Made by a program: the position numbers and the translations under genes. From Candidatus Poribacteria bacterium (GTDB lineage: Bacteria > Poribacteria > WGA-4E > WGA-3G), in contig JAJECN010000058.1 of NCBI GenBank assembly GCA_022821965.1, forward strand, positions 1-64,000: 64,000 nt of DNA. Reading direction: 5' to 3'. The notes beneath the pieces were generated by a model, which was not told the origin of the DNA, did not search any database, and was given only the letters and a program-made list of their open reading frames with translations. Below are positions 16,007 to 25,435 of the stretch, in pieces; position 1 is the first letter of the stretch, and each line of letters begins with the position of its first letter.

Positions 16007-16540
16007 CTAAAGAAGCTTAGCGTTCGCAGTGAGAATAGGTATTTCCTGAGTTTTGAAATCGCCATCGTTTGTTATTAAAGTGAATCCATTGTTTTTGCAG
16101 ATTTCTGTTATGACTTGATCATTGAAGTCGTAATCACCAGTGGCATAATCATTGAGCAGATTGTCCATGCCGAGCGTTTCAAAGTCGCTTTCAATCCGTG
16201 AACAGTGCTTCATAATTTGTTTGACATCATCAACAATATTCTTAGCGACGGGTTTGAAACCTTGGCTATTGCGAAAATCTTTAAATTGATTGATGCGCGG
16301 TGCAATAAGTTTCCATCTCACTCGAGCGTAGCTGTTGATAAACTCTGAAACAACAAGAACATCAATGTAAATTCGGCTTTTTGCTTGCAGAATGCGGTTA
16401 AAAGCGTTGGTGTAGATAGACCTCCAATAAGTGCTCAGTTCCAGCGAACCTGACACATACAACCAGATATTAGCATCCAAAAATAGTCTGTCTTGGGAGG
16501 TAAAGGGGTAGTGCTGCACCGCTGCAGCTTTATGGTTCAT
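16007..16540 (-). CDS. PIN-domain protein paired with a STAS-like protein
   Basis: 177 residues. Conserved acidic positions of a PIN nuclease are present: D22 in LFLDANIWLYV, E66 in VVSEFINSY, D138 and D141 in GDYDFNDQVI and D159 in LITNDGDF. Its ATG lies inside the 3' end of the STAS-like gene (11-base overlap), so the two are translated as a unit with the STAS-like protein first. That order and overlap resemble toxin-antitoxin operons with the antitoxin upstream. The target RNA is unknown. Confidence 0.8.
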   Translation of the reverse strand: MNHKAAAVQHYPFTSQDRLFLDANIWLYVSGSLELSTYWRSIYTNAFNRILQAKSRIYIDVLVVSEFINSYARVRWKLIAPRINQFKDFRNSQGFKPVAKNIVDDVKQIMKHCSRIESDFETLGMDNLLNDYATGDYDFNDQVITEICKNNGFTLITNDGDFKTQEIPILTANAKLL

Positions 16541-16895
16541 AGCTCTCCTCCTCCAAGACTTCTTGAATTATTTGTTTATATCTCTCGGGGTCTTTGAAGT
16601 ATAACTTGGCATCGTCAACAACGCGCCCTAACAGCGAGATATCGTCGGGTACCGCGTCCTTAATTTTCAACAAGGAACGAATGTGTTCTTCATTGAACGT
16701 GCCATACAACTGACCTACGGCGGCATTGAGGAAAGCAGCTGTTAGTGCCGTGACATTTTGAAATGAAAGGACGACCTCTTGGTTCGCCCTCAGAGCAGCG
16801 TCAAGGTGTTTATGAACCTTCTGCCCATCGTCGAAGGCGACGCAAAAAGGACTGCCCACAACTTCAAACATGGATATTCTAATATTTTCTGACAC
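16530..16895 (-). CDS. STAS-like domain protein (DUF4325-like), candidate antitoxin
   Basis: 121 residues from the GTG at 16895, which follows a strong AAGGAGGTAACC ribosome-binding sequence. The frame continues 30 codons further upstream without such a signal. The middle portion (EVVLSFQNVTALTAAFLNAAVGQ) fits the DUF4325 STAS-like fold: beta-strand, then a T-A-x-F-L-N-x-A-x-G helix. It has no DNA-binding motif, so if it neutralises the PIN protein it would be through direct contact. DUF4325 proteins are also found with histidine kinases, so the pairing alone does not prove a toxin-antitoxin role. Confidence 0.7.
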   Translation of the reverse strand: MSENIRISMFEVVGSPFCVAFDDGQKVHKHLDAALRANQEVVLSFQNVTALTAAFLNAAVGQLYGTFNEEHIRSLLKIKDAVPDDISLLGRVVDDAKLYFKDPERYKQIIQEVLEEESYEP

Positions 16896-17095
16896 GGTTA
16901 CCTCCTTAAAAAATGTGTAAGTCTTAATAGATGTAAATTGTCCAAACTTCAGTAATATCATATCACAAAAAATCGCGAAATTCAAAAAAATAAAGAAGAA
17001 AAACTTTAGTAATCATAAGTATTTTTGGTATTCGTTAAATCCTACCGATCCTTCCACGTCTCTACAATTATCCTACAGTCGTTATCACAACCATT

Positions 17096-17923
17096 CTAAG
17101 ATTTATTCATATCCAATTCCGCCATAGATCTAAGGTTCAATAGCGGTGTCATCACACCGCCAGCAGCGGGGAGGACGACTCCCGTATCGTAAAGTTTCAT
17201 AGCAGAAATCGTAGCGTGTGCGACATCTTCAGGAGCACCTGCACGGACCATAAAGATGTAGCCTTTCTCCGCCGCTTCTTCATAATCGGGAATACGGACG
17301 CGCGATAGATCTGTATCAATCACACCGGCCGCGATGCCGTTTACCTTAATCCCGTGCGCTGCCAATCGTCCAGCGTAGGCGCGCATGCTCATCTCCAACC
17401 CTGCTTTTGAGATACAGTAGGCTGTCCGGTTGTCGGATGCCATTATGTCGGAAATTGAGAGCGTGTAGATGATGCACCCGCGGACCTCGTTTGCTACCAT
17501 GTAATTCGCGACGCGCTGCGTGAGGAAATGGGTTGCCTTAAGGTTCGTATTGACGATTAGATCAAACTGCTCTGGTGTCTCCTCAAGAATGTCAGCGATA
17601 CGGGTGATGCCAGCGTTATTGATGAGGATGTCTACCTTTCCGAAGGCATCGTGTGCGGTGTCAAGCAATCTTTCGTGTGCATCAAGGTCGCTAATGTCGG
17701 CTTGGATGATAACGGCTTTCCTGCCGAGTGCTTCCACCTCTTGTTGCACAGATTCAGCAGCATCACGGTTTTGGTTGTAGTTGATTAGCACGTCAGCACC
17801 TTGGCGTGCCAATTCGATTGCGATTGCACGTCCGATGCCGCGACTGGAACCTGTTACGATTGCGGATTTGTCTGTGAATGAAACGTCTGTTGCAAAGAAT
17901 CCAAGATCTGTATCTGTTGGCAT
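17096..17923 (-). CDS. Short-chain dehydrogenase/reductase (SDR)
   Basis: 275 residues from the ATG at 17923 (AAGGAG seven bases upstream). The longer frame runs through a repeat and is discarded. Classical SDR motifs: TGSSRGIGRAIAIELA for the cofactor, NNAGI, catalytic Ser in YTLSISD and Y-x-x-x-K as YCISKAG. The beta-2 strand ends in INYNQNRDAA, leaving NADPH or NADH open. It probably reduces a 3-keto or sugar substrate. It lies downstream of the oligopeptide transporter on the same strand, separated by a palindromic element. Confidence 0.9.
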   Translation of the reverse strand: MPTDTDLGFFATDVSFTDKSAIVTGSSRGIGRAIAIELARQGADVLINYNQNRDAAESVQQEVEALGRKAVIIQADISDLDAHERLLDTAHDAFGKVDILINNAGITRIADILEETPEQFDLIVNTNLKATHFLTQRVANYMVANEVRGCIIYTLSISDIMASDNRTAYCISKAGLEMSMRAYAGRLAAHGIKVNGIAAGVIDTDLSRVRIPDYEEAAEKGYIFMVRAGAPEDVAHATISAMKLYDTGVVLPAAGGVMTPLLNLRSMAELDMNKS

Positions 17924-17951
17924 ATTTTTCTCCTTAGGTGTCAATAAGTCC

Positions 17952-18059
17952 GGTGCGGTTAGGAATGCAGATCGCAAATGTAAAGCAAAGACAAATTTTA
18001 CCGCGTGTGGGTAAAATTTGGGTGAGTACACCGCAAAACCGCACCTACCGAGCCTGGGG
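17952..18059. repeat. Nested palindromic element
   Basis: Outer arms GGTGCGGTT (17952-17960) and AACCGCACC (18037-18045). The inner perfect 11-bp hairpin CAAATTTTACC (17992-18002)/GGTAAAATTTG (18010-18020) has a 7-base loop. It ends CCTACCGAGCCTGGGG, as at 191-204. A related TGTAAAG(T/C)AAAGACAAAT string recurs near 41145. Lying between the oppC-like gene and the SDR gene, the inner hairpin might also stop transcription. Confidence 0.65.
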
Positions 18060-18065
18060 AATCTT

Positions 18066-19148
18066 TTAATCTGAATATGGATCCGCGGCATCGCGGAGGG
18101 CATCCCCTAAGAAGTTGAAAGCGATGACGACGATGAGTACTGGAACAGCAGGAAAAATGAGCCAGGGGTAATGGAGCAGGACAGTAACACGCTGTGCCTC
18201 TTCTAACAATACTCCCCAACTCGTCATCGGGGGACGGATGCCCAATCCCAAGAAACTGAGTGCGGTCTCTCCCAGAATCATGCCGGGGATAGCGAGTGTA
18301 GCGATAACGATGATATGACTATAACATCCGGGTAGCAAGTGTCGTGTGATAATGTGCCACTGTCCTGCGCCCGCAGCACGCGCTGCCATCACGAAATCGC
18401 TCTCCCGATACGCCAAAACCTTTCCGCGCACTTGTCGCGCCAAACCACCCCAACGTATAATTGACAAAATAATCGTAATTCCGAAGTAGATTTGGATGCT
18501 CGACCAACCGGGTGGCAGTGCGGCACCGAGTGCCATCCAGAGTGGGATGTCCGGGAATGCTGAAAGGATTTCAATAATACGTTGGATTAGATTGTCTACC
18601 CATCCGCCCCAGTATCCAGATATTGTGCCGAGGATAGAACCAAGAACGATGCTCAGAAGAACGCCGACTAAGCCAAGCGTCATTGAGACGCGTGCACCGT
18701 ACATAATTCGCGAAAGCAGATCGCGTCCCATCCGGTCAGTGCCTAATAGGAACATGGGACCGGCGGAACTAAAAAAATGTCTTCTGCCATCCGCATCCTT
18801 AAAGAAGAATACGACGGGATGCCGTTGTGTCATATCCTTGGTGAATTCTAACTCAAGACTTTCTGGGTTACGGACAGATTTTAACCCGTGAACATAAAAT
18901 CCATCTTCAACCGAGAAATGGAGGCGTTGGGGCGGTACATGCCGCAGTCGCATGTTGATTTCGTTGTAGTGATAGGGTGCGAAGAAGTCGGCACCGATGG
19001 CAAGGATATAAAACAGAAGCAGAAGAGCACCAGCAATAACCCCCATCCGATTCTTGCGAAACCTTCGCCAGATGAGTTGACGGTAACTCAATTGTCCTAC
19101 TTCCGCTGCATCTTTAACTTCTTCCCCAGTCTCAATTGTAGGTTTCAT
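18066..19148 (-). CDS. Oligopeptide ABC transporter permease, OppC-like
   Basis: 360 residues. The N-terminal cytoplasmic tail and first helix (RFRKNRMGVIAGALLLLFYI) are the OppC hallmark. A periplasmic insertion of about 90 residues (55-145) precedes the FLLGTDRMGRDLLSRIMYGARVS block. Helices 2-6 include the EAA-type coupling motif ESDFVMAARAAGAGQWHIITRHLLP. It forms the heterodimeric channel with the OppB-like permease upstream. The ending RDAADPYSD is typical. It is last in the D-F-MNT/HEPN-A-B-C run. Confidence 0.93.
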   Translation of the reverse strand: MKPTIETGEEVKDAAEVGQLSYRQLIWRRFRKNRMGVIAGALLLLFYILAIGADFFAPYHYNEINMRLRHVPPQRLHFSVEDGFYVHGLKSVRNPESLELEFTKDMTQRHPVVFFFKDADGRRHFFSSAGPMFLLGTDRMGRDLLSRIMYGARVSMTLGLVGVLLSIVLGSILGTISGYWGGWVDNLIQRIIEILSAFPDIPLWMALGAALPPGWSSIQIYFGITIILSIIRWGGLARQVRGKVLAYRESDFVMAARAAGAGQWHIITRHLLPGCYSHIIVIATLAIPGMILGETALSFLGLGIRPPMTSWGVLLEEAQRVTVLLHYPWLIFPAVPVLIVVIAFNFLGDALRDAADPYSD

Positions 19149-19235
19149 ATATTAATCCAAATTGTGTAGCCCGTAATGTAATGGAGGGCGGATAGGTGAA
19201 ATGCACGTCATAGACTTAACAGACGTTATTACTCC

Positions 19236-19257
19236 GCAAGGTAAAATTAAAAATCAT
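19236..19257 (+). repeat. Stray leader repeat
   Basis: CTCCGCAAGGTAAAATTAAA on the plus strand, opposite to the flanking genes and with no start codon that it could serve. It touches the stop codon of the OppB-like gene. It shows that the leader block also occurs without a gene behind it. Confidence 0.5.
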
Positions 19258-20240
19258 TCATAGCGAATCCTCGGATCCACCCAAGCGAGGGCTATGTCTG
19301 CAAGTAGGTTGCCGATAACTAAAAGGAGACTCAACATCATAATCAACGTCCCCGCAAGATAGATGTCCTCGTTCAACAAACTGCGTAAGAGAATCGGTCC
19401 GACTGTCGGTAAGCCCAAGACAATTGAGACAATCGCTGAACCGGAGAGAATGCCGGGTAGACTCATTCCTAAAATACTGATGAGCGGGTTGATGGCAATA
19501 CGCACGGCATGCTTCCCGACCACGACAATTTCTTTCAGCCCTTTTGCACGTGCCGTTTGAACAAAGGGCTGCCCTAACACATCAAGCAGGTTACCGCGCA
19601 TGATCCGCATCAGACTGGCGGTTCCGTTAATACCGACGACAATCACTGGAATCCAGAGATGTTTGAAAAGATCGCCGAGTTTGCCCCATGTCCATGGCGC
19701 GCCTTCATAGTAAGCCGAAAATAACCCAAATAGCGGAACGCCAAAGATGTCAAACGCAAACACCATCAACGAGAGTGCCAAGAGAAACGCCGGTATGGAC
19801 ATTCCGACAAAACTAAGGAAGGTAAGGAAGTGATCTGACCATTTGTATTGATGCGTGGCTGAATAAATCCCAAGTGGGATAGCAACGACATAAGTGAAAA
19901 TAAGCGATCCGACAGAAATAAGGAGCGTAAAGGCGATCCGATCCCATATCAGTTCATCGACTTCGCGCTTATACTCAAACGACTCACCGAAGTTGCCGCG
20001 TACAAAACCGCTTATCCAGATGAAGTAACGTTTCCATAAGGGGTCATTCAGCCCGTAGCGTTCGCGCAATTCCTCAACTTGTGCGAGCGAGCTGCTATCG
20101 CCAAACTCCTCTTCTAAGCGTTGAATTTCGCGGTCGAGGTAATCGCCTTGCGGGAGTTGGATAATAATAAAAGAGATAATGGAAATCGCCAAAAGTGTCG
20201 GAATAGCAATCAGACATCGGCGAATGATATAGGTAATTAT
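19254..20240 (-). CDS. Oligopeptide ABC transporter permease, OppB-like, with non-standard start
   Basis: Six-helix permease with the OppB signature: first helix, then PQGDYLDREIQRLEEEFG, RYGLNDPLWKRYFIW, GSLIFTYVVAIPLGIYSA and the coupling motif QTARAKGLKEIVVVGKHAVR. The conventional start would be TTG at 20192, but that cuts the first membrane helix. The frame is open further upstream and encodes ITYIIRRCLIAIPTLL, the expected OppB N-terminus. This begins at ATA (20240) or ATT (20237), eight to eleven bases after AAGGAG. No ATG, GTG or TTG exists between the upstream stop (20258) and 20192. I take ATA/ATT as the probable start; a CTG eight to nine codons in is another option. Confidence 0.88.
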   Translation of the reverse strand: MITYIIRRCLIAIPTLLAISIISFIIIQLPQGDYLDREIQRLEEEFGDSSSLAQVEELRERYGLNDPLWKRYFIWISGFVRGNFGESFEYKREVDELIWDRIAFTLLISVGSLIFTYVVAIPLGIYSATHQYKWSDHFLTFLSFVGMSIPAFLLALSLMVFAFDIFGVPLFGLFSAYYEGAPWTWGKLGDLFKHLWIPVIVVGINGTASLMRIMRGNLLDVLGQPFVQTARAKGLKEIVVVGKHAVRIAINPLISILGMSLPGILSGSAIVSIVLGLPTVGPILLRSLLNEDIYLAGTLIMMLSLLLVIGNLLADIALAWVDPRIRYE

Positions 20241-20399: not shown

Positions 20400-22352
20400 C
20401 TATTTCTTAGATATCCAACACTGTTCAGGATAATGTGTTGCTGGTGTAACAATTGCCCACGGACCTAAAATGCCATCATTTGGCACATTGTGAAAATGGT
20501 CCGCTACAACCAAGAGCGATGGCGAACGTGCTGCGGAACCGAGGTGAAAGGGTCCCTCGTCAATGTGAATCCTGACCGCGTCACGAACATATTGATGTCG
20601 CTGTTTCTCGTCGGGTTCCCGCTTAATCTCATCGTATAAGTCAAGCAATTTCTTTAGCGGTCCGGTGGGCGGTTCACCTTTTTCACCGCCAGTCTCATAC
20701 CATTTCCCGACCTTCGGGTGCCAGTACTTCGCGAGTGTGGGAAATACCCAATCCGGATACGTAAAGAGATCCATTTCTGCTTCACCATGCATACTGATTG
20801 TAAATTTGCCGAGTGTGCGGCGGAGACTCAATTCGGCACCGGGTGGTGTATAGAGCAGCGTTTTCAAGCCGAGTTCTTCCCACCCCTCTTGAATAATTAA
20901 TCCAATGTCGTTTTCCTGACTATTGAGATTGGAACTCGGAACATCCATGAGTATCTCAATACGCTCGCCATCTGGACGTAGTCTATAGCCGTCTTTATCC
21001 CGTGCTGTGAGTCCCATTTCATCTAAGAGGCGATTTCCCGCAGCGATATCGAAATCCGCATCAGCGCGTTTCCACTCCTCAAAGAGAGTTTGCCCATCCT
21101 CGTCAGCGAAATGCCATCCCTCTTGGCTAACTGTCGCTGCCTGCGGTTCTAACAACCCGCGCCATGCGATTTCGTTACATTTCACGCGGTCAATGCCATA
21201 AGCGAGTGCCTTTCGGAATCGTTGGTCGCGGATGAGTTTTCTTAGCACTGGATCGGGCGCGGTCCAGTTAATCAGGATAGCAGGTTGCGCGCCAGCCGTG
21301 CTTTTCCAGCGACGTACTTTATAGCTACCCTTCTCTTGTCCTTTCAGATAAAGGGCAAGATCCCGGAGTTCCATTCCACGGTATTGGCAATCGATTTCCC
21401 CAGCGAGGATTTTGAGGACGCGTACCTGTGGTTCGGGTACTAAACTGGTCTTGACTCTGTCAATGTACGGAAGCTGCCTACCAAGTTCATCAACGACGTA
21501 ATAATATGGATTGCGTTCTAATTCAACACGGAAGCCGCCCTTTTCATATTTCGTTACTCGCCAGGGCCACAACGTTGGACGTCCTGGGTTCTGGTGTGGG
21601 ATGTTTTCTTTCTCGAATCGAATGAAATCGTCATATTCGGGGTTGTGGTCGGGATGGAACTGCTTCATGTAGTGCTGTGGAATATTGTATTGGTTGCACC
21701 ACCAAAATCCGGTTGCCAACCAAAGCGGCACGAGCCAGTTGGGACCCGCAAATTTCATTACAATCGTGTAATCATCTGGTGTCTCAACTTCCATTGGGAT
21801 GCCGTTTACTTTGCACCAAACGGGCGCGCCGTACTTATGCCGTTCATCAAGACAGAGGTCATAATAAAAGGCAAATGAGGCAGAAGTATACGGATGCCCA
21901 TCTGACCATTTGACCCCCTTGCGGAGATGCAACGTCAACATACTGCCATCTTCGTTAAACTCCCACGATTCTGCTAAACCGGGTTCCAAACCGGATGCAT
22001 CAAATTTCCAACGGATGAGGGGGGCATACCCCGCTGTCATCTTCCACGTCCCTAAATCTGGATGTGTGTGAAACCGGTGCCATGTCCCGCCGTAGGGACC
22101 GGGACGTTCATATCCGTCGAAATCGGTTTTAGCAACGAGCGGATTTTCTGGAAGCCGCTCTGAAAGCAGCGGAAGTTTACCCTCCGCGACCTGTTTTGCC
22201 CACATCGGCGCCTCTTTCGCCTCAACTCCACTCGGAAAATCAGAGGTATCCTCTAATTGACCGCTCGAACACCCAACAATAAGAATGGATAAGATGAACA
22301 GTAGTTTAATACAATTCAGGGTAGGTTGGAAAGTTCGCGTTGTTTCGTGCAT
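20400..22352 (-). CDS. Oligopeptide-type ABC transporter substrate-binding lipoprotein
   Basis: 650 residues. It has a lipoprotein signal with C28 in ILIVGCSSG, so the protein is tethered outside the cytoplasmic membrane. The SBP_bac_5 fold is indicated by LAESWEFNEDGSMLTLHLRKG, VKWSDGHPYTSASFAFYYDL, YDPEPQVRVLKILAGEIDC-like SLVPEPQVRVLKILAGEID and LRKLIRDQRFRKALAYGID. It is longer than E. coli OppA (about 540), mainly in the W-rich centre. The ligand is unknown, probably a peptide or a nickel/opine-like compound. A GGAGG site lies within the end of the MNT-HEPN gene, one base away from this ATG's neighbour stop. Confidence 0.9.
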   Translation of the reverse strand: MHETTRTFQPTLNCIKLLFILSILIVGCSSGQLEDTSDFPSGVEAKEAPMWAKQVAEGKLPLLSERLPENPLVAKTDFDGYERPGPYGGTWHRFHTHPDLGTWKMTAGYAPLIRWKFDASGLEPGLAESWEFNEDGSMLTLHLRKGVKWSDGHPYTSASFAFYYDLCLDERHKYGAPVWCKVNGIPMEVETPDDYTIVMKFAGPNWLVPLWLATGFWWCNQYNIPQHYMKQFHPDHNPEYDDFIRFEKENIPHQNPGRPTLWPWRVTKYEKGGFRVELERNPYYYVVDELGRQLPYIDRVKTSLVPEPQVRVLKILAGEIDCQYRGMELRDLALYLKGQEKGSYKVRRWKSTAGAQPAILINWTAPDPVLRKLIRDQRFRKALAYGIDRVKCNEIAWRGLLEPQAATVSQEGWHFADEDGQTLFEEWKRADADFDIAAGNRLLDEMGLTARDKDGYRLRPDGERIEILMDVPSSNLNSQENDIGLIIQEGWEELGLKTLLYTPPGAELSLRRTLGKFTISMHGEAEMDLFTYPDWVFPTLAKYWHPKVGKWYETGGEKGEPPTGPLKKLLDLYDEIKREPDEKQRHQYVRDAVRIHIDEGPFHLGSAARSPSLLVVADHFHNVPNDGILGPWAIVTPATHYPEQCWISKK

Positions 22353-22353
22353 C

Positions 22354-23298
22354 TCAAACGTCCTCCTCGCGTCTGACGAGGGAATCTGTGAATCTGTTCA
22401 TATCTTCAGAGACATGTTCAAAAAGTTCGCCAATGGATTTCGCATGCGGTATGGTCTTTTCATATTTCAATTCCCTGCCGTAAATGTTGTTCACCTTGTG
22501 ACGGAATTCTAAAAGTTCTTCCAGTTCGCGACGTGTATTTTCGGAAATCACTGGACGGCGTTCCGGTCGCTTTTCTGCCATTTGCGCAAGTAGGTTTTTA
22601 TGCCATCTACTCCCCGTCGGCATAAGCGTATCAACTTCACGCGCAATCCGTTCAAAAATCCGCTCTATGCCATTATAGACATCAGCAAGATCTGTAGCGA
22701 TTGTATTTTCAATAAATTCCGTGACATCAGTGGGAACCTCCTCAATATTATCCAATCCTCTTTGAATTCTTTCAAGCGTTCCATTTATTTTATCAAGTTC
22801 ATCATTGATGCGTTGTGTGAGTCTTTTGCGGTTTATTTCGTAAATGTCTCCATCCTCAGTAGGAAAAACCTGTCGCTGTAAGTGTTTGTAAAGTGTCTGC
22901 CATAATCCTGGGTGGGCTCCTTTTTCAATAGGAATCGCTTGGTATTTTATTCGCTCCCGGAAGTGCCCTTTCGACGTATCGAAGTTAATGAAGTCTATTT
23001 TAAATCCTGATTTGAAGTCCATAACCCTTCTCCACGCTTTATCATAATCATCCGTGGAGAGTCCGGACACAGCGATATCAATATCTGATCTGCTTGTGAA
23101 CGCTATCGGTTCTGTGAGTGAACCGAAGACAGTGACTTGGGTTGCACCGAACTCTTCATAAAGCAGTGTCGCTACTTGATATGCAGTGTCCCATGCCCGA
23201 CGGAGCAAACTTTCGTCCATTACTCGGCTCTTCCACTGCCGTGCCAGCTGCTTCCTACACGCTGAGAGTTCATCTGGAGACATCTTTTGTTTTGACAT
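22354..23298 (-). CDS. Fused minimal nucleotidyltransferase-HEPN protein (MntA-HepT-like)
   Basis: 314 residues from the ATG at 23298; longer frames run back into the ATPase gene. Residues 33-125 form a nucleotidyltransferase domain with the motif G59-S60...D72-I-D74 (11-residue spacing) and a third acidic residue at D102 (KIDFINFD). In MntA antitoxins this domain AMPylates the toxin. A helical linker of about 60 residues leads to a HepT-like helical domain (about 195-310) ending in the motif R266-H-x-x-x-N271-x-Y273. The usual RNase motif is R-x4-6-H, so the final His appears as Asn. Only 2 bases separate it from the upstream ATPase and 1 from the downstream binding protein. Fusion of both halves is unusual, and the host operon is a transporter. 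Confidence 0.8.
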   Translation of the reverse strand: MSKQKMSPDELSACRKQLARQWKSRVMDESLLRRAWDTAYQVATLLYEEFGATQVTVFGSLTEPIAFTSRSDIDIAVSGLSTDDYDKAWRRVMDFKSGFKIDFINFDTSKGHFRERIKYQAIPIEKGAHPGLWQTLYKHLQRQVFPTEDGDIYEINRKRLTQRINDELDKINGTLERIQRGLDNIEEVPTDVTEFIENTIATDLADVYNGIERIFERIAREVDTLMPTGSRWHKNLLAQMAEKRPERRPVISENTRRELEELLEFRHKVNNIYGRELKYEKTIPHAKSIGELFEHVSEDMNRFTDSLVRREEDV

Positions 23299-23300
23299 CA

Positions 23301-24296
23301 CTAAACCCCCTGTAATTCCAAAGTATCGCTGTGGTGACATGCTACCCGAACGCCCTGTGCTACCTGACGGAGTTCTGGTGTTTCCTGTTTGCATATATCC
23401 GTCGCATAACGACACCGCGGGTGGAAATAGCATCCAGTCGGTGGCTGTGAAGGATCCGGGACATCTCCCTCAAGGCGGATATGTTCCCGTCTCCGCTGTG
23501 CATTCGGATCTGGGAGCGGCACGGCAGATATCAACGCTTCGGTGTAGGGATGTTTCGGGGATTGATAAAGGGTTTCAGCGTCGCTGATCTCCACAATTTT
23601 GCCGAGATACATGACTGCAACACGGTCGCTGATATGTTCAACAACGCTCAAGTCGTGTGCAATAAAGATATAAGAGAGATTGAATTCTTCGCGGAGTTCT
23701 GCGAGTAGGTTGAGAATCTGTGCTTGGACGGAAACATCCAATGCTGAGACCGGTTCATCTGCGACGATGAGTTCAGGTTGGAGTGCTAACGCCCGCGCAA
23801 TACCAATGCGTTGGCGTTGTCCACCGCTGAAGGCGTGTGGATAACGGCGTATATCCTGCGATTGCAAGCCTACGGATTCCAGCAGTTCAACAATTCGGTC
23901 TTGAAGTGCTGTCCCTTTTTCGGTCTGATTGACGCGCATCGGTTCTCCGACGATATCTCCTACCGTCATCCGTGGATTGAGCGAGGCGTGAGGGTCTTGA
24001 AAAATCATCTGGATGCGTCTGCGAAAGGGGCGCATCTCTCGGTGTGTCAATTTCGCCAGATCCACCTGTTCCTCGCCGAAAATGAAACTTCCACTTGTCG
24101 GTGGAATTAACCGGAGTAAACATCGACCAGCTGTCGTCTTTCCACAACCACTCTCACCAACAAGACCAAGCGTTTCACCGCTATGCACGTCGAAGCTGAT
24201 ACCATCAACCGCCTTGACATAACCGATGGTACGTTGAAAGATGCCTTTTTGTATAGGAAAGTATTTTCTGAGGTCGTTTACCTCAAGCAATTTCAT
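23301..24296 (-). CDS. Oligopeptide ABC transporter ATP-binding protein, OppF-like
   Basis: 331 residues. Walker [17 protein letters not shown]-loop [17 protein letters not shown], signature [17 protein letters not shown], Walker [15 protein letters not shown] and H-loop [13 protein letters not shown]. The C-terminal oligopeptide-specific region has [23 protein letters not shown] and a GCYFHPRC cysteine set that can bind an Fe-S cluster. The start [13 protein letters not shown] with [16 protein letters not shown] is the OppF variant. ATG at 24296 sits directly behind a leader repeat. It powers import with the OppD-like partner. Confidence 0.95.
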
Positions 24297-24400: not shown

Positions 24401-25435
24401 TTAAAAATCTGTGTGAAGCCAGCATCGGACAGCATGCCTACAACTTTCCGCTTCCGCATTGACTATCGCGAGTTCCGGCATCTGCTCACATTCCGACATC
24501 CGTTCCGAACACCGAGGTTGGAATGAACACCCTACCGGCAGTCCCAACGGATGCGGCACTGTTCCAGGTATAGAGGGCAAGGTTTTCTGCGGTGTTTTCC
24601 CGAGGACGGGTATAGATTTTAGCAATCCCTGCGTGTAAGGATGCAGCGGATTATAGAAGATGTCATCAACGGTGCCTCTTTCGACGACACGCCCGGCGTA
24701 CATGACAACGACTTCATCAGCGAGATCCGCAATCACACCAAGATCATGGGTGATGAGCATAATCGCCATTCCCATTTCCGCCTGCAGTTCCTGCATCAGA
24801 CCGAGTACCTGTGCCTGGATCGTCACATCAAGTGCTGTTGTCGGTTCATCAGCGATGAGTAACATGGGAGAACAACAGAGTGCCATCGCAATCATGATAC
24901 GTTGACGCATACCACCGGAGAGTTGGTGCGGATATTCATCAACGCGTTGCGCAGGGGCAGGTATGCCGACGCGTGCGATCATCTCAATTGCACGCTCGCG
25001 TGCCGTTTTTTTGTCAACCTGCTCGTGCAACACAATTGCTTCGGCAATCTGGTTCCCGACAGTATAAACTGGATTGAGGGAGGTCATCGGCTCCTGGAAA
25101 ATGATGGCAATTTCGTTGCCGCGGATTTGGCGCATCAATTCACTTTTCGGGGACACCTGAGCGATATCCAGTGGTTCATCATCACCATTGCGACGAAACA
25201 GGATCTCGCCCGCTTCGATTCGTCCGGGCGATGGGACGAGTTGAAGCAGGGATAGCCCAGTGATGCTTTTCCCACAGCCACTTTCGCCGACAACGCCGAC
25301 GGTCTGTCCGGGACCGATTTCAAAACTAACATCACTTACAGCGTTCACGATGCCATCGTCTGTTGGAAAGACCGTTTTTAAACCAGAAATTTCCAGGAGC
25401 GGTTTTTCGTGAGATGTTTTTTCTACTGAAGCCAT
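24401..25435 (-). CDS. Oligopeptide ABC transporter ATP-binding protein, OppD-like
   Basis: 344 residues. Walker [22 protein letters not shown]-loop AIIFQEPMTSLNPVYTVG, signature QLSGGMRQRIMIAMALCC, Walker B LLIADEPTTALDVTIQAQVL and H-loop LITHDLGVIADLADEV. The C-terminal region has LPVGCSFQPRCSERMSECEQMP, the cysteine-rich peptide-transporter tail. It heads the operon, with the OppF-like gene about 100 bases downstream. That gap contains the leader repeat and a CCCAAGCAAAAA repeat copy near 24368. Confidence 0.95.
   Translation of the reverse strand: MASVEKTSHEKPLLEISGLKTVFPTDDGIVNAVSDVSFEIGPGQTVGVVGESGCGKSITGLSLLQLVPSPGRIEAGEILFRRNGDDEPLDIAQVSPKSELMRQIRGNEIAIIFQEPMTSLNPVYTVGNQIAEAIVLHEQVDKKTARERAIEMIARVGIPAPAQRVDEYPHQLSGGMRQRIMIAMALCCSPMLLIADEPTTALDVTIQAQVLGLMQELQAEMGMAIMLITHDLGVIADLADEVVVMYAGRVVERGTVDDIFYNPLHPYTQGLLKSIPVLGKTPQKTLPSIPGTVPHPLGLPVGCSFQPRCSERMSECEQMPELAIVNAEAESCRHAVRCWLHTDF

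What the first reader, a model, noticed from the sequence alone, without database searches (positions are those of the whole stretch)
22354..23298. Toxin and antitoxin halves fused: nucleotidyltransferase-HEPN gene inside an oligopeptide transporter operon
Seen: one 314-residue protein holds the nucleotidyltransferase motif (G59-S60, D72, D74, D102) and a HepT-like domain in which the expected R-x4-H reads R266-x4-N271. It sits 2 bases after the OppF-like gene and 1 base before the binding-protein gene. Established: MntA and HepT are normally separate genes, MntA silencing HepT by AMPylation. Inference: the fusion may be a self-restrained regulator, possibly dead as an RNase, and its position may tie it to peptide uptake or nutrient signals.
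Basis: partly seen in the sequence, partly recalled or inferred. Interest (0 to 1): 0.7.

Follow-up and report, generated by a model that had tools for sequence, protein, structure and literature searches.

The report
Fused MntA-HepT-like protein in transporter operon
This gene from a sponge-associated bacterium joins a toxin-like domain and its enzyme 'safety catch' in one protein; it sits inside a peptide-transporter operon, but it belongs to a family that also sits in unrelated operons, is often lost and is swapped between strains, so it looks like a passenger rather than a part of peptide uptake.

Summary
Window 22354-23298 (-) is a real 314-aa gene joining a nucleotidyltransferase (NTase) to a PF20797 'HepT-like_2' HEPN domain, in a Poribacteria dpp/opp operon (2-bp and 1-bp gaps). 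Its folds match MntA and HepT. The interpretation needs correcting. (1) The Asn in place of the RX4H His is a family feature: N 88, H 18, Y 14 of 124 relatives, against near-invariant NTase residues, Arg266, His267, His233 and Tyr273 (the AMP-acceptor position of HepT). Loss of RNase activity is not shown. (2) The operon does not tie it to peptide uptake. Fused homologues sit in front of unrelated genes (DUF6785, VWA-CoxE, SDR) and in leu- and his-like operons. It was lost at least 7 times within its genus while OppF and SBP stayed. A sister genus kept it after losing the binding protein and permeases. (3) It is under purifying selection (dN/dS 0.16), but its tree conflicts with both flanking genes, which agree with each other. 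Best reading: a single-chain, self-AMPylating MntA/HepT-type module for growth control or defence, carried as an operon passenger. No activity was tested. MNT-HEPN fusions are known, so this is a variant, not a new kind.

The parts
22354..23298 (-). Fused nucleotidyltransferase - HepT-like (PF20797) gene, 314 aa
22933..23157 (-). NTase (MntA-like) domain, residues 48-122; G59 S60 D72 D74 D102 nearly invariant in relatives
22381..22701 (-). HepT-like_2 (HEPN) domain, residues 200-306
22480..22503 (-). R266-H267-x3-N271-x-Y273 motif (RX4HXY position of HepT; Y273 is the predicted AMP acceptor)
   Evidence: PMC7641770
22600..22602 (-). H233, near-invariant His N-terminal to the motif (candidate alternative catalytic His)
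   Evidence: PMC3710099
22362..22367 (-). AGGAGG in the last codons of the fused gene, presumed ribosome-binding site for the SBP gene
23301..24296 (-). OppF/DppF-like ATPase, upstream neighbour
20400..22352 (-). SBP_bac_5 solute-binding protein, downstream neighbour
24401..25435 (-). OppD/DppD-like ATPase, same operon
18066..20192 (-). two permease-like genes of the operon (19254-20192 and 18066-19148)
   Evidence: translations; not searched against Pfam
17096..18103 (-). SDR oxidoreductase, last gene of the operon; in the sister genus it directly follows the fused gene(s)

Best explanation
A single-chain relative of the type VII toxin-antitoxin pair MntA/HepT. Shown: an N-terminal MntA-like NTase and a C-terminal HepT-like HEPN domain in one chain, both under purifying selection, with the NTase active site and the acceptor-position Tyr273 conserved. 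Inferred: the NTase moves AMP from ATP onto Tyr273 of its own HEPN domain (in cis or within a dimer) and so keeps the HEPN site shut. When ATP, the NTase or the modification is disturbed (stress, infection), the HEPN site acts on RNA, either cleaving it with residues other than the RX4H histidine (H233, H267 and E212 are candidates) or binding it, and growth slows. The gene sits as a translationally coupled passenger in several housekeeping operons, is lost cleanly and often, and its alleles appear to be exchanged between strains, as defence or toxin-antitoxin genes often are.
For: Domain and fold matches. Conservation across 119-124 relatives: G59, S60 and D72 in all 119 with the site, D74 118, D102 115, R266 123/124, H267 118/124, H233 121/123, Y208 and E212 123/123, Y273 120/124, against N271 at 88/124. 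Tree changes: 0-3 at the catalytic and Tyr positions, 10 at 271. All 120 sequences with Tyr273 keep a His at 267 or 271; the 4 that lack both also lack Tyr273. Split two-gene homologues with 4-bp overlaps and RxxxxN or RxxxxH occur on cyanobacterial plasmids. dN/dS is 0.16, similar in both domains. At least 7 losses; junctions. Allele exchange: OppF and SBP trees have 0 conflicting strong splits, the fused gene conflicts in 7 of 14 and 9 of 15, AU p 0.00016. One genome has three DNA methylase genes, the one searched carrying an Mrr_cat domain, in the same slot. Chemistry of AMP on the RX4HXY Tyr: PMC7641770.
Against: No activity was tested. The RX4H His is absent in this protein and in all 26 aligned opp-locus orthologues. 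Anantharaman et al. (PMC3710099) hold that HEPN domains fused to NTases are usually inactive, domesticated substrate-binding domains. The family is rare on plasmids and was not found in the phage and viral collections. Discordant trees could in part come from sorting of tandem copies (two or three copies exist in the slot in sister genera), although none of the genomes of this genus that I saw keeps two.
Confidence: 0.45

Rival explanations
1. Domesticated nucleotidyltransferase: the HEPN domain has lost RNase activity and only presents a substrate (protein or RNA) to the NTase, which regulates some other cell component.
For: Fused HEPN domains usually lose the RNase motif (PMC3710099); the RX4H His is replaced in most relatives; chromosomal, stable loci with one clade per locus for most of them.
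Against: Tyr273, R266, H267 and H233 stay conserved, which a mere substrate-binding domain would not obviously need; one paralogue clade that lost H267 and H/N271 lost Tyr273 too; repeated loss and allele exchange are unlike a core regulator.
Confidence: 0.3
2. Regulator of oligopeptide uptake or nutrient sensing, tied to the operon it sits in.
For: Conserved position between OppF and SBP in 29 of 38 genus genomes, tight coupling, ribosome-binding site for the SBP inside the gene.
Against: At least 7 losses with OppF and SBP kept at 91-95% identity; a sister genus keeps OppF and the fused gene (15 of 17 loci) but has lost the SBP orthologue and, in the loci read, the permeases; homologues in front of unrelated genes; other lineages fill the same slot with DUF4956-CotH-VTC or methylases.
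Confidence: 0.08
3. Small-molecule (antibiotic) nucleotidyltransferase with a HEPN-like C-terminal domain, as in kanamycin NTase or AadA.
For: Same two-domain order; whole-chain matches to ANT(4')/KNTase at Z about 9.3-9.7 and AadA at Z about 8.
Against: Those alignments have rmsd 6-9 A, so the domains are arranged differently; the separate domains match MntA and HepT far better; the HEPN motif residues are kept.
Confidence: 0.07
4. Decaying relic with no function.
For: Repeated deletions, some leaving short remnants.
Against: dN/dS about 0.16 across both domains in 26 orthologues and invariant catalytic residues.
Confidence: 0.03

Closest known systems
Type VII toxin-antitoxin HepT/MntA (SO_3166/SO_3165; PMC7641770)
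   Same: MntA-like NTase fold and motif, HepT-like HEPN fold, NTase before HEPN, Tyr at the AMP-acceptor position
   Different: One chain instead of two; GS-x11-DxD instead of GS-x10-DxD; R-x4-N-x-Y instead of R-x4-H-x-Y; PF20797 instead of PF01934/PF08780; operon-embedded
PF20797 HepT-like_2 family, split NTase + HEPN pairs of cyanobacterial plasmids (Gloeothece, Pseudanabaena)
   Same: Same HEPN family by profile, same gene order, R-H-x3-[NH]-x-Y motif
   Different: Two overlapping genes instead of one; on plasmids, next to transposases or defence-like genes
Legionella HEPN-MNT (PMC11586414)
   Same: MNT/HEPN folds; shows that RX4H need not be the RNase site (R98A and H103A had negligible effect; Mg site Q44/E47)
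   Different: Separate genes, canonical RX4HXY; equivalence of E47 with E212 here was not tested
MNT-HEPN fusion proteins (PMC3710099; also in BREX loci, PMC12839542)
   Same: Same domain fusion; loss of the RNase motif noted as typical
   Different: Here the acceptor Tyr and alternative His residues are kept, and the genes occupy housekeeping operons
Kanamycin nucleotidyltransferase / AadA
   Same: NTase plus helical C-terminal domain
   Different: Different domain packing (rmsd 6-9 A)

Membership tests
PF20797 HepT-like_2 | Score above Pfam's gathering cut-off | tested here: met
   98.8 bits vs 27
Type VII TA (HepT/MntA) | MNT fold with GS-x10-DxD motif | tested here: met
   Fold match Z 11.7 to MNT; motif is GS-x11-DxD, one residue longer than the published form, nearly invariant
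Type VII TA (HepT/MntA) | HEPN-fold toxin with RX4HXY | tested here: not met
   Fold met (Z about 15-15.6), but the motif is RX4NXY; RX4HXY in 18 of 124 relatives
Type VII TA (HepT/MntA) | Acceptor Tyr in the motif | tested here: met
   Y273; Tyr in 120 of 124 relatives
Type VII TA (HepT/MntA) | Toxin and antitoxin as two separate genes | tested here: not met
   One open frame in the window and in the other intact opp-locus orthologues
Type VII TA (HepT/MntA) | NCBIfam NF047752 MntA antitoxin equivalog cut-off | tested here: not met
   20.8 bits vs 60
Type VII TA (HepT/MntA) | AMPylation of HepT and toxicity of unmodified HepT | not testable with these tools
   needs protein or growth assays
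MNT-HEPN fusion proteins (Anantharaman 2013) | NTase and HEPN domain in one chain, RX4-6H entirely or partly lost | tested here: met
Aminoglycoside nucleotidyltransferases | Shared two-domain architecture with superposable domains | tested here: inconclusive
   whole-chain Z about 8-9.7 with rmsd 6-9 A

The most novel reading that the evidence does not exclude
Poribacteria carry a family of single-chain, self-AMPylating HEPN proteins that are immune or growth-arrest effectors using a non-RX4H site. They live as passengers translationally coupled inside housekeeping operons (dpp, leu-like, his-like and others), are exchanged between strains without their neighbours, and are dropped by precise deletions.
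Probability: 0.25. Interest if true: 0.65.

Novelty: new variant of a known kind. Interest (0 to 1): 0.4.

Why it matters
It is a natural one-chain version of a toxin and the enzyme that disarms it, in which the supposed catalytic His drifts (N/H/Y, about 10 changes on the tree) while the AMP-acceptor Tyr and the AMP-transferring site stay fixed. That allows a direct test of which HEPN residues do the work, and of whether AMPylation can act within one chain. It also shows that a conserved operon position need not mean a shared function: this gene is lost and swapped independently of its neighbours.

Tried and rejected
Mobile-element origin in phages or viruses: no match among 50,697 phage records and no relative confirmed in the viral contigs; only 6 plasmid records match, mostly cyanobacterial. 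PHROGs gave nothing useful. PADLOC gave only weak PDC-S09 NTase matches. Sequence searches of the PDB were dominated by coiled-coil noise, so the fold comparison was used. A link to peptide uptake was rejected. Decay was rejected by dN/dS. No paper in the library holds PF20797, 'HepT-like protein' or 'HepT-like domain'. Distance Tyr273 to the NTase site: no coordinates available.

Full report
What is there. The gene lies on the minus strand at 22354-23298 and encodes 314 residues. Two bases separate it from the OppF-like gene and one base from the SBP gene. Pfam puts PF20797 HepT-like_2 on residues 200-306 (98.8 bits, cut-off 27) and a Polbeta nucleotidyltransferase on 48-122 (26.3 bits, just under its cut-off of 26.9). 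NCBIfam's MntA model is only touched (20.8 bits against 60). An AlphaFold2 model on an alignment of 75 relatives (A1) has mean pLDDT 84.8. Residues 156-310 match HepT toxins best (Z about 15-15.6) and residues 28-127 match MNT antitoxins (Z 11.7). Whole-chain matches to kanamycin NTase exist but at rmsd 8-9 A.

Organism. Close relatives are named Candidatus Poribacteria MAGs, a phylum best known from marine sponges (PMC3909097).

Where relatives sit. In the genus of the window, 29 of 38 genomes have the gene between OppF and SBP; for some of these a contig end cuts one neighbour, and for one (G002) only the C-terminal part is on that contig, upstream of the SBP. OppF and SBP are 86-96% identical to the window's while the fused gene is 66-85% identical. 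Nine genomes lack it and have OppF joined to the SBP. Three of these (G016, G019, G030) keep short remnants of the fused gene, such as its first 18-29 codons plus its last 40. On a tree of OppF+SBP, with sister genera as outgroup in which the gene is present, this needs 7 changes, so at least 7 losses. When the gene is present, its last codons usually carry an AGGAGG-like sequence, the presumed ribosome-binding site for the SBP. In most of the losses the SBP start has moved up to the former start of the fused gene, next to OppF's stop.

Separation from the transporter. In a sister genus (g20), 17 of 18 genomes keep OppF at 81-86% identity, but none has the SBP orthologue (best E about 1e-11, against 0 elsewhere). 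In 15 of the 17 OppF loci one or more fused genes follow OppF directly. In the loci read further the order is dppD, dppF, two or three fused genes, SDR, with SBP and both permeases missing. Other lineages hold different genes in the slot: three DNA methylase genes (the one searched has an Mrr_cat domain too) plus the fused gene in G063, and DUF4956, CotH and VTC genes in G037/G040. Elsewhere fused copies stand in front of DUF6785 (26), VWA_CoxE (16), another fused copy (23), SDR (3) or Gfo/Idh-like genes (2; named from the sequence, not searched), usually within 20 bases. The DUF6785, SDR and Gfo/Idh loci each have their own clade, and the opp-locus copies of this genus group together; the VWA_CoxE array is mixed with its tandem copies. 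More distant fused forms of about 255 aa lie between an aconitase-family pair that looks like leuC and leuD, and after hisB (IGPD) and a glutamine amidotransferase that looks like hisH.

Evolutionary mode. dN/dS is 0.16 overall and about 0.15 in each of the two domains, so both halves are constrained. OppF and SBP trees share 11 strong splits with no conflict, whereas the fused gene conflicts with them in 7 of 14 and 9 of 15 strong splits, and the flank clade holding the window is rejected for the fused gene (AU p 0.00016; the clade was picked after seeing the trees). The middle gene thus seems to have been exchanged without its neighbours. Sorting of tandem copies is the rival reading, but no genome of this genus that I saw has two copies in the slot.

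The motif. Across 119-124 sequences the NTase residues are nearly invariant, as are R266 (123), H267 (118), H233 (121 of 123), Y208 and E212 (123 of 123) and Y273 (120). Position 271 is N in 88, H in 18, Y in 14, R in 3, C in 1, with 10 changes on the tree against 0-3 at the others. All 26 aligned opp-locus orthologues have N. Every sequence with Tyr273 keeps a His at 267 or 271. Split, two-gene homologues on cyanobacterial plasmids carry N or H as well, so the Asn is older than, or independent of, this fusion.

Meaning. In Shewanella, MntA adds three AMPs to the Tyr of RX4HXY (PMC7641770). That Tyr is kept here, with the NTase. The HEPN survey noted that families lacking the RX4H His can have a second conserved His upstream (AF0298, AbiV), and that HEPN domains fused to NTases tend to lose the RNase motif and become domesticated (PMC3710099). 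In Legionella, mutating R and H of RX4HXY hardly affected RNase activity, and an Mg site with Q44 and E47 did the work (PMC11586414). So N271 by itself does not show a dead RNase. My best reading is a single-chain, self-AMPylating MntA/HepT-type module acting in growth control or defence (0.45). The main rival is a domesticated NTase with the HEPN domain as substrate holder (0.3). The enzymatic steps are inferred, not shown.

Novelty. MNT-HEPN fusions are already described (PMC3710099; in BREX loci, PMC12839542). What is added here is a variant: fused PF20797 proteins with a drifting RX4H His but a fixed acceptor Tyr, embedded in several housekeeping operons, repeatedly deleted and apparently exchanged. 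No paper on PF20797 was found, but most subscription journals are not held.

Noticed in passing
window 16007-16985 (-): Two overlapping genes: a STAS-like DUF4325 protein (16530-16985) and a PIN-domain protein (16007-16540). The pair stays together in the 11 other genus loci checked, and the PIN gene is broken or partial in several others; it looks like a toxin-antitoxin-like pair.
   Followed up: partly
L159 1472-6361 (G063): Three tandem N6_N4_Mtase-like proteins (Mrr_cat domain found in the one searched) between OppF and the fused gene in the same slot.
   Followed up: partly
L168, L169 (G037, G040): DUF4956, CotH and VTC genes occupy the OppF-SBP slot in another family: the slot looks like an insertion hot spot.
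   Followed up: no
L034 8099-8473: PemK/MazF-like toxin gene between two loci with fused NTase-HEPN paralogues in the window's own genome.
   Followed up: no
L041 6255-7148, L043 7599-8516, L045 15670-16554: A paralogue clade that lost H267, the 271 residue and Tyr273 together, while the NTase motif is mostly intact (one copy has D74N).
   Followed up: partly
L173 3-2640 and L170 5307-7281: Distant fused NTase-HEPN genes between aconitase-family genes that look like leuC and leuD, and after hisB and a hisH-like gene, i.e. again inside housekeeping operons.
   Followed up: partly
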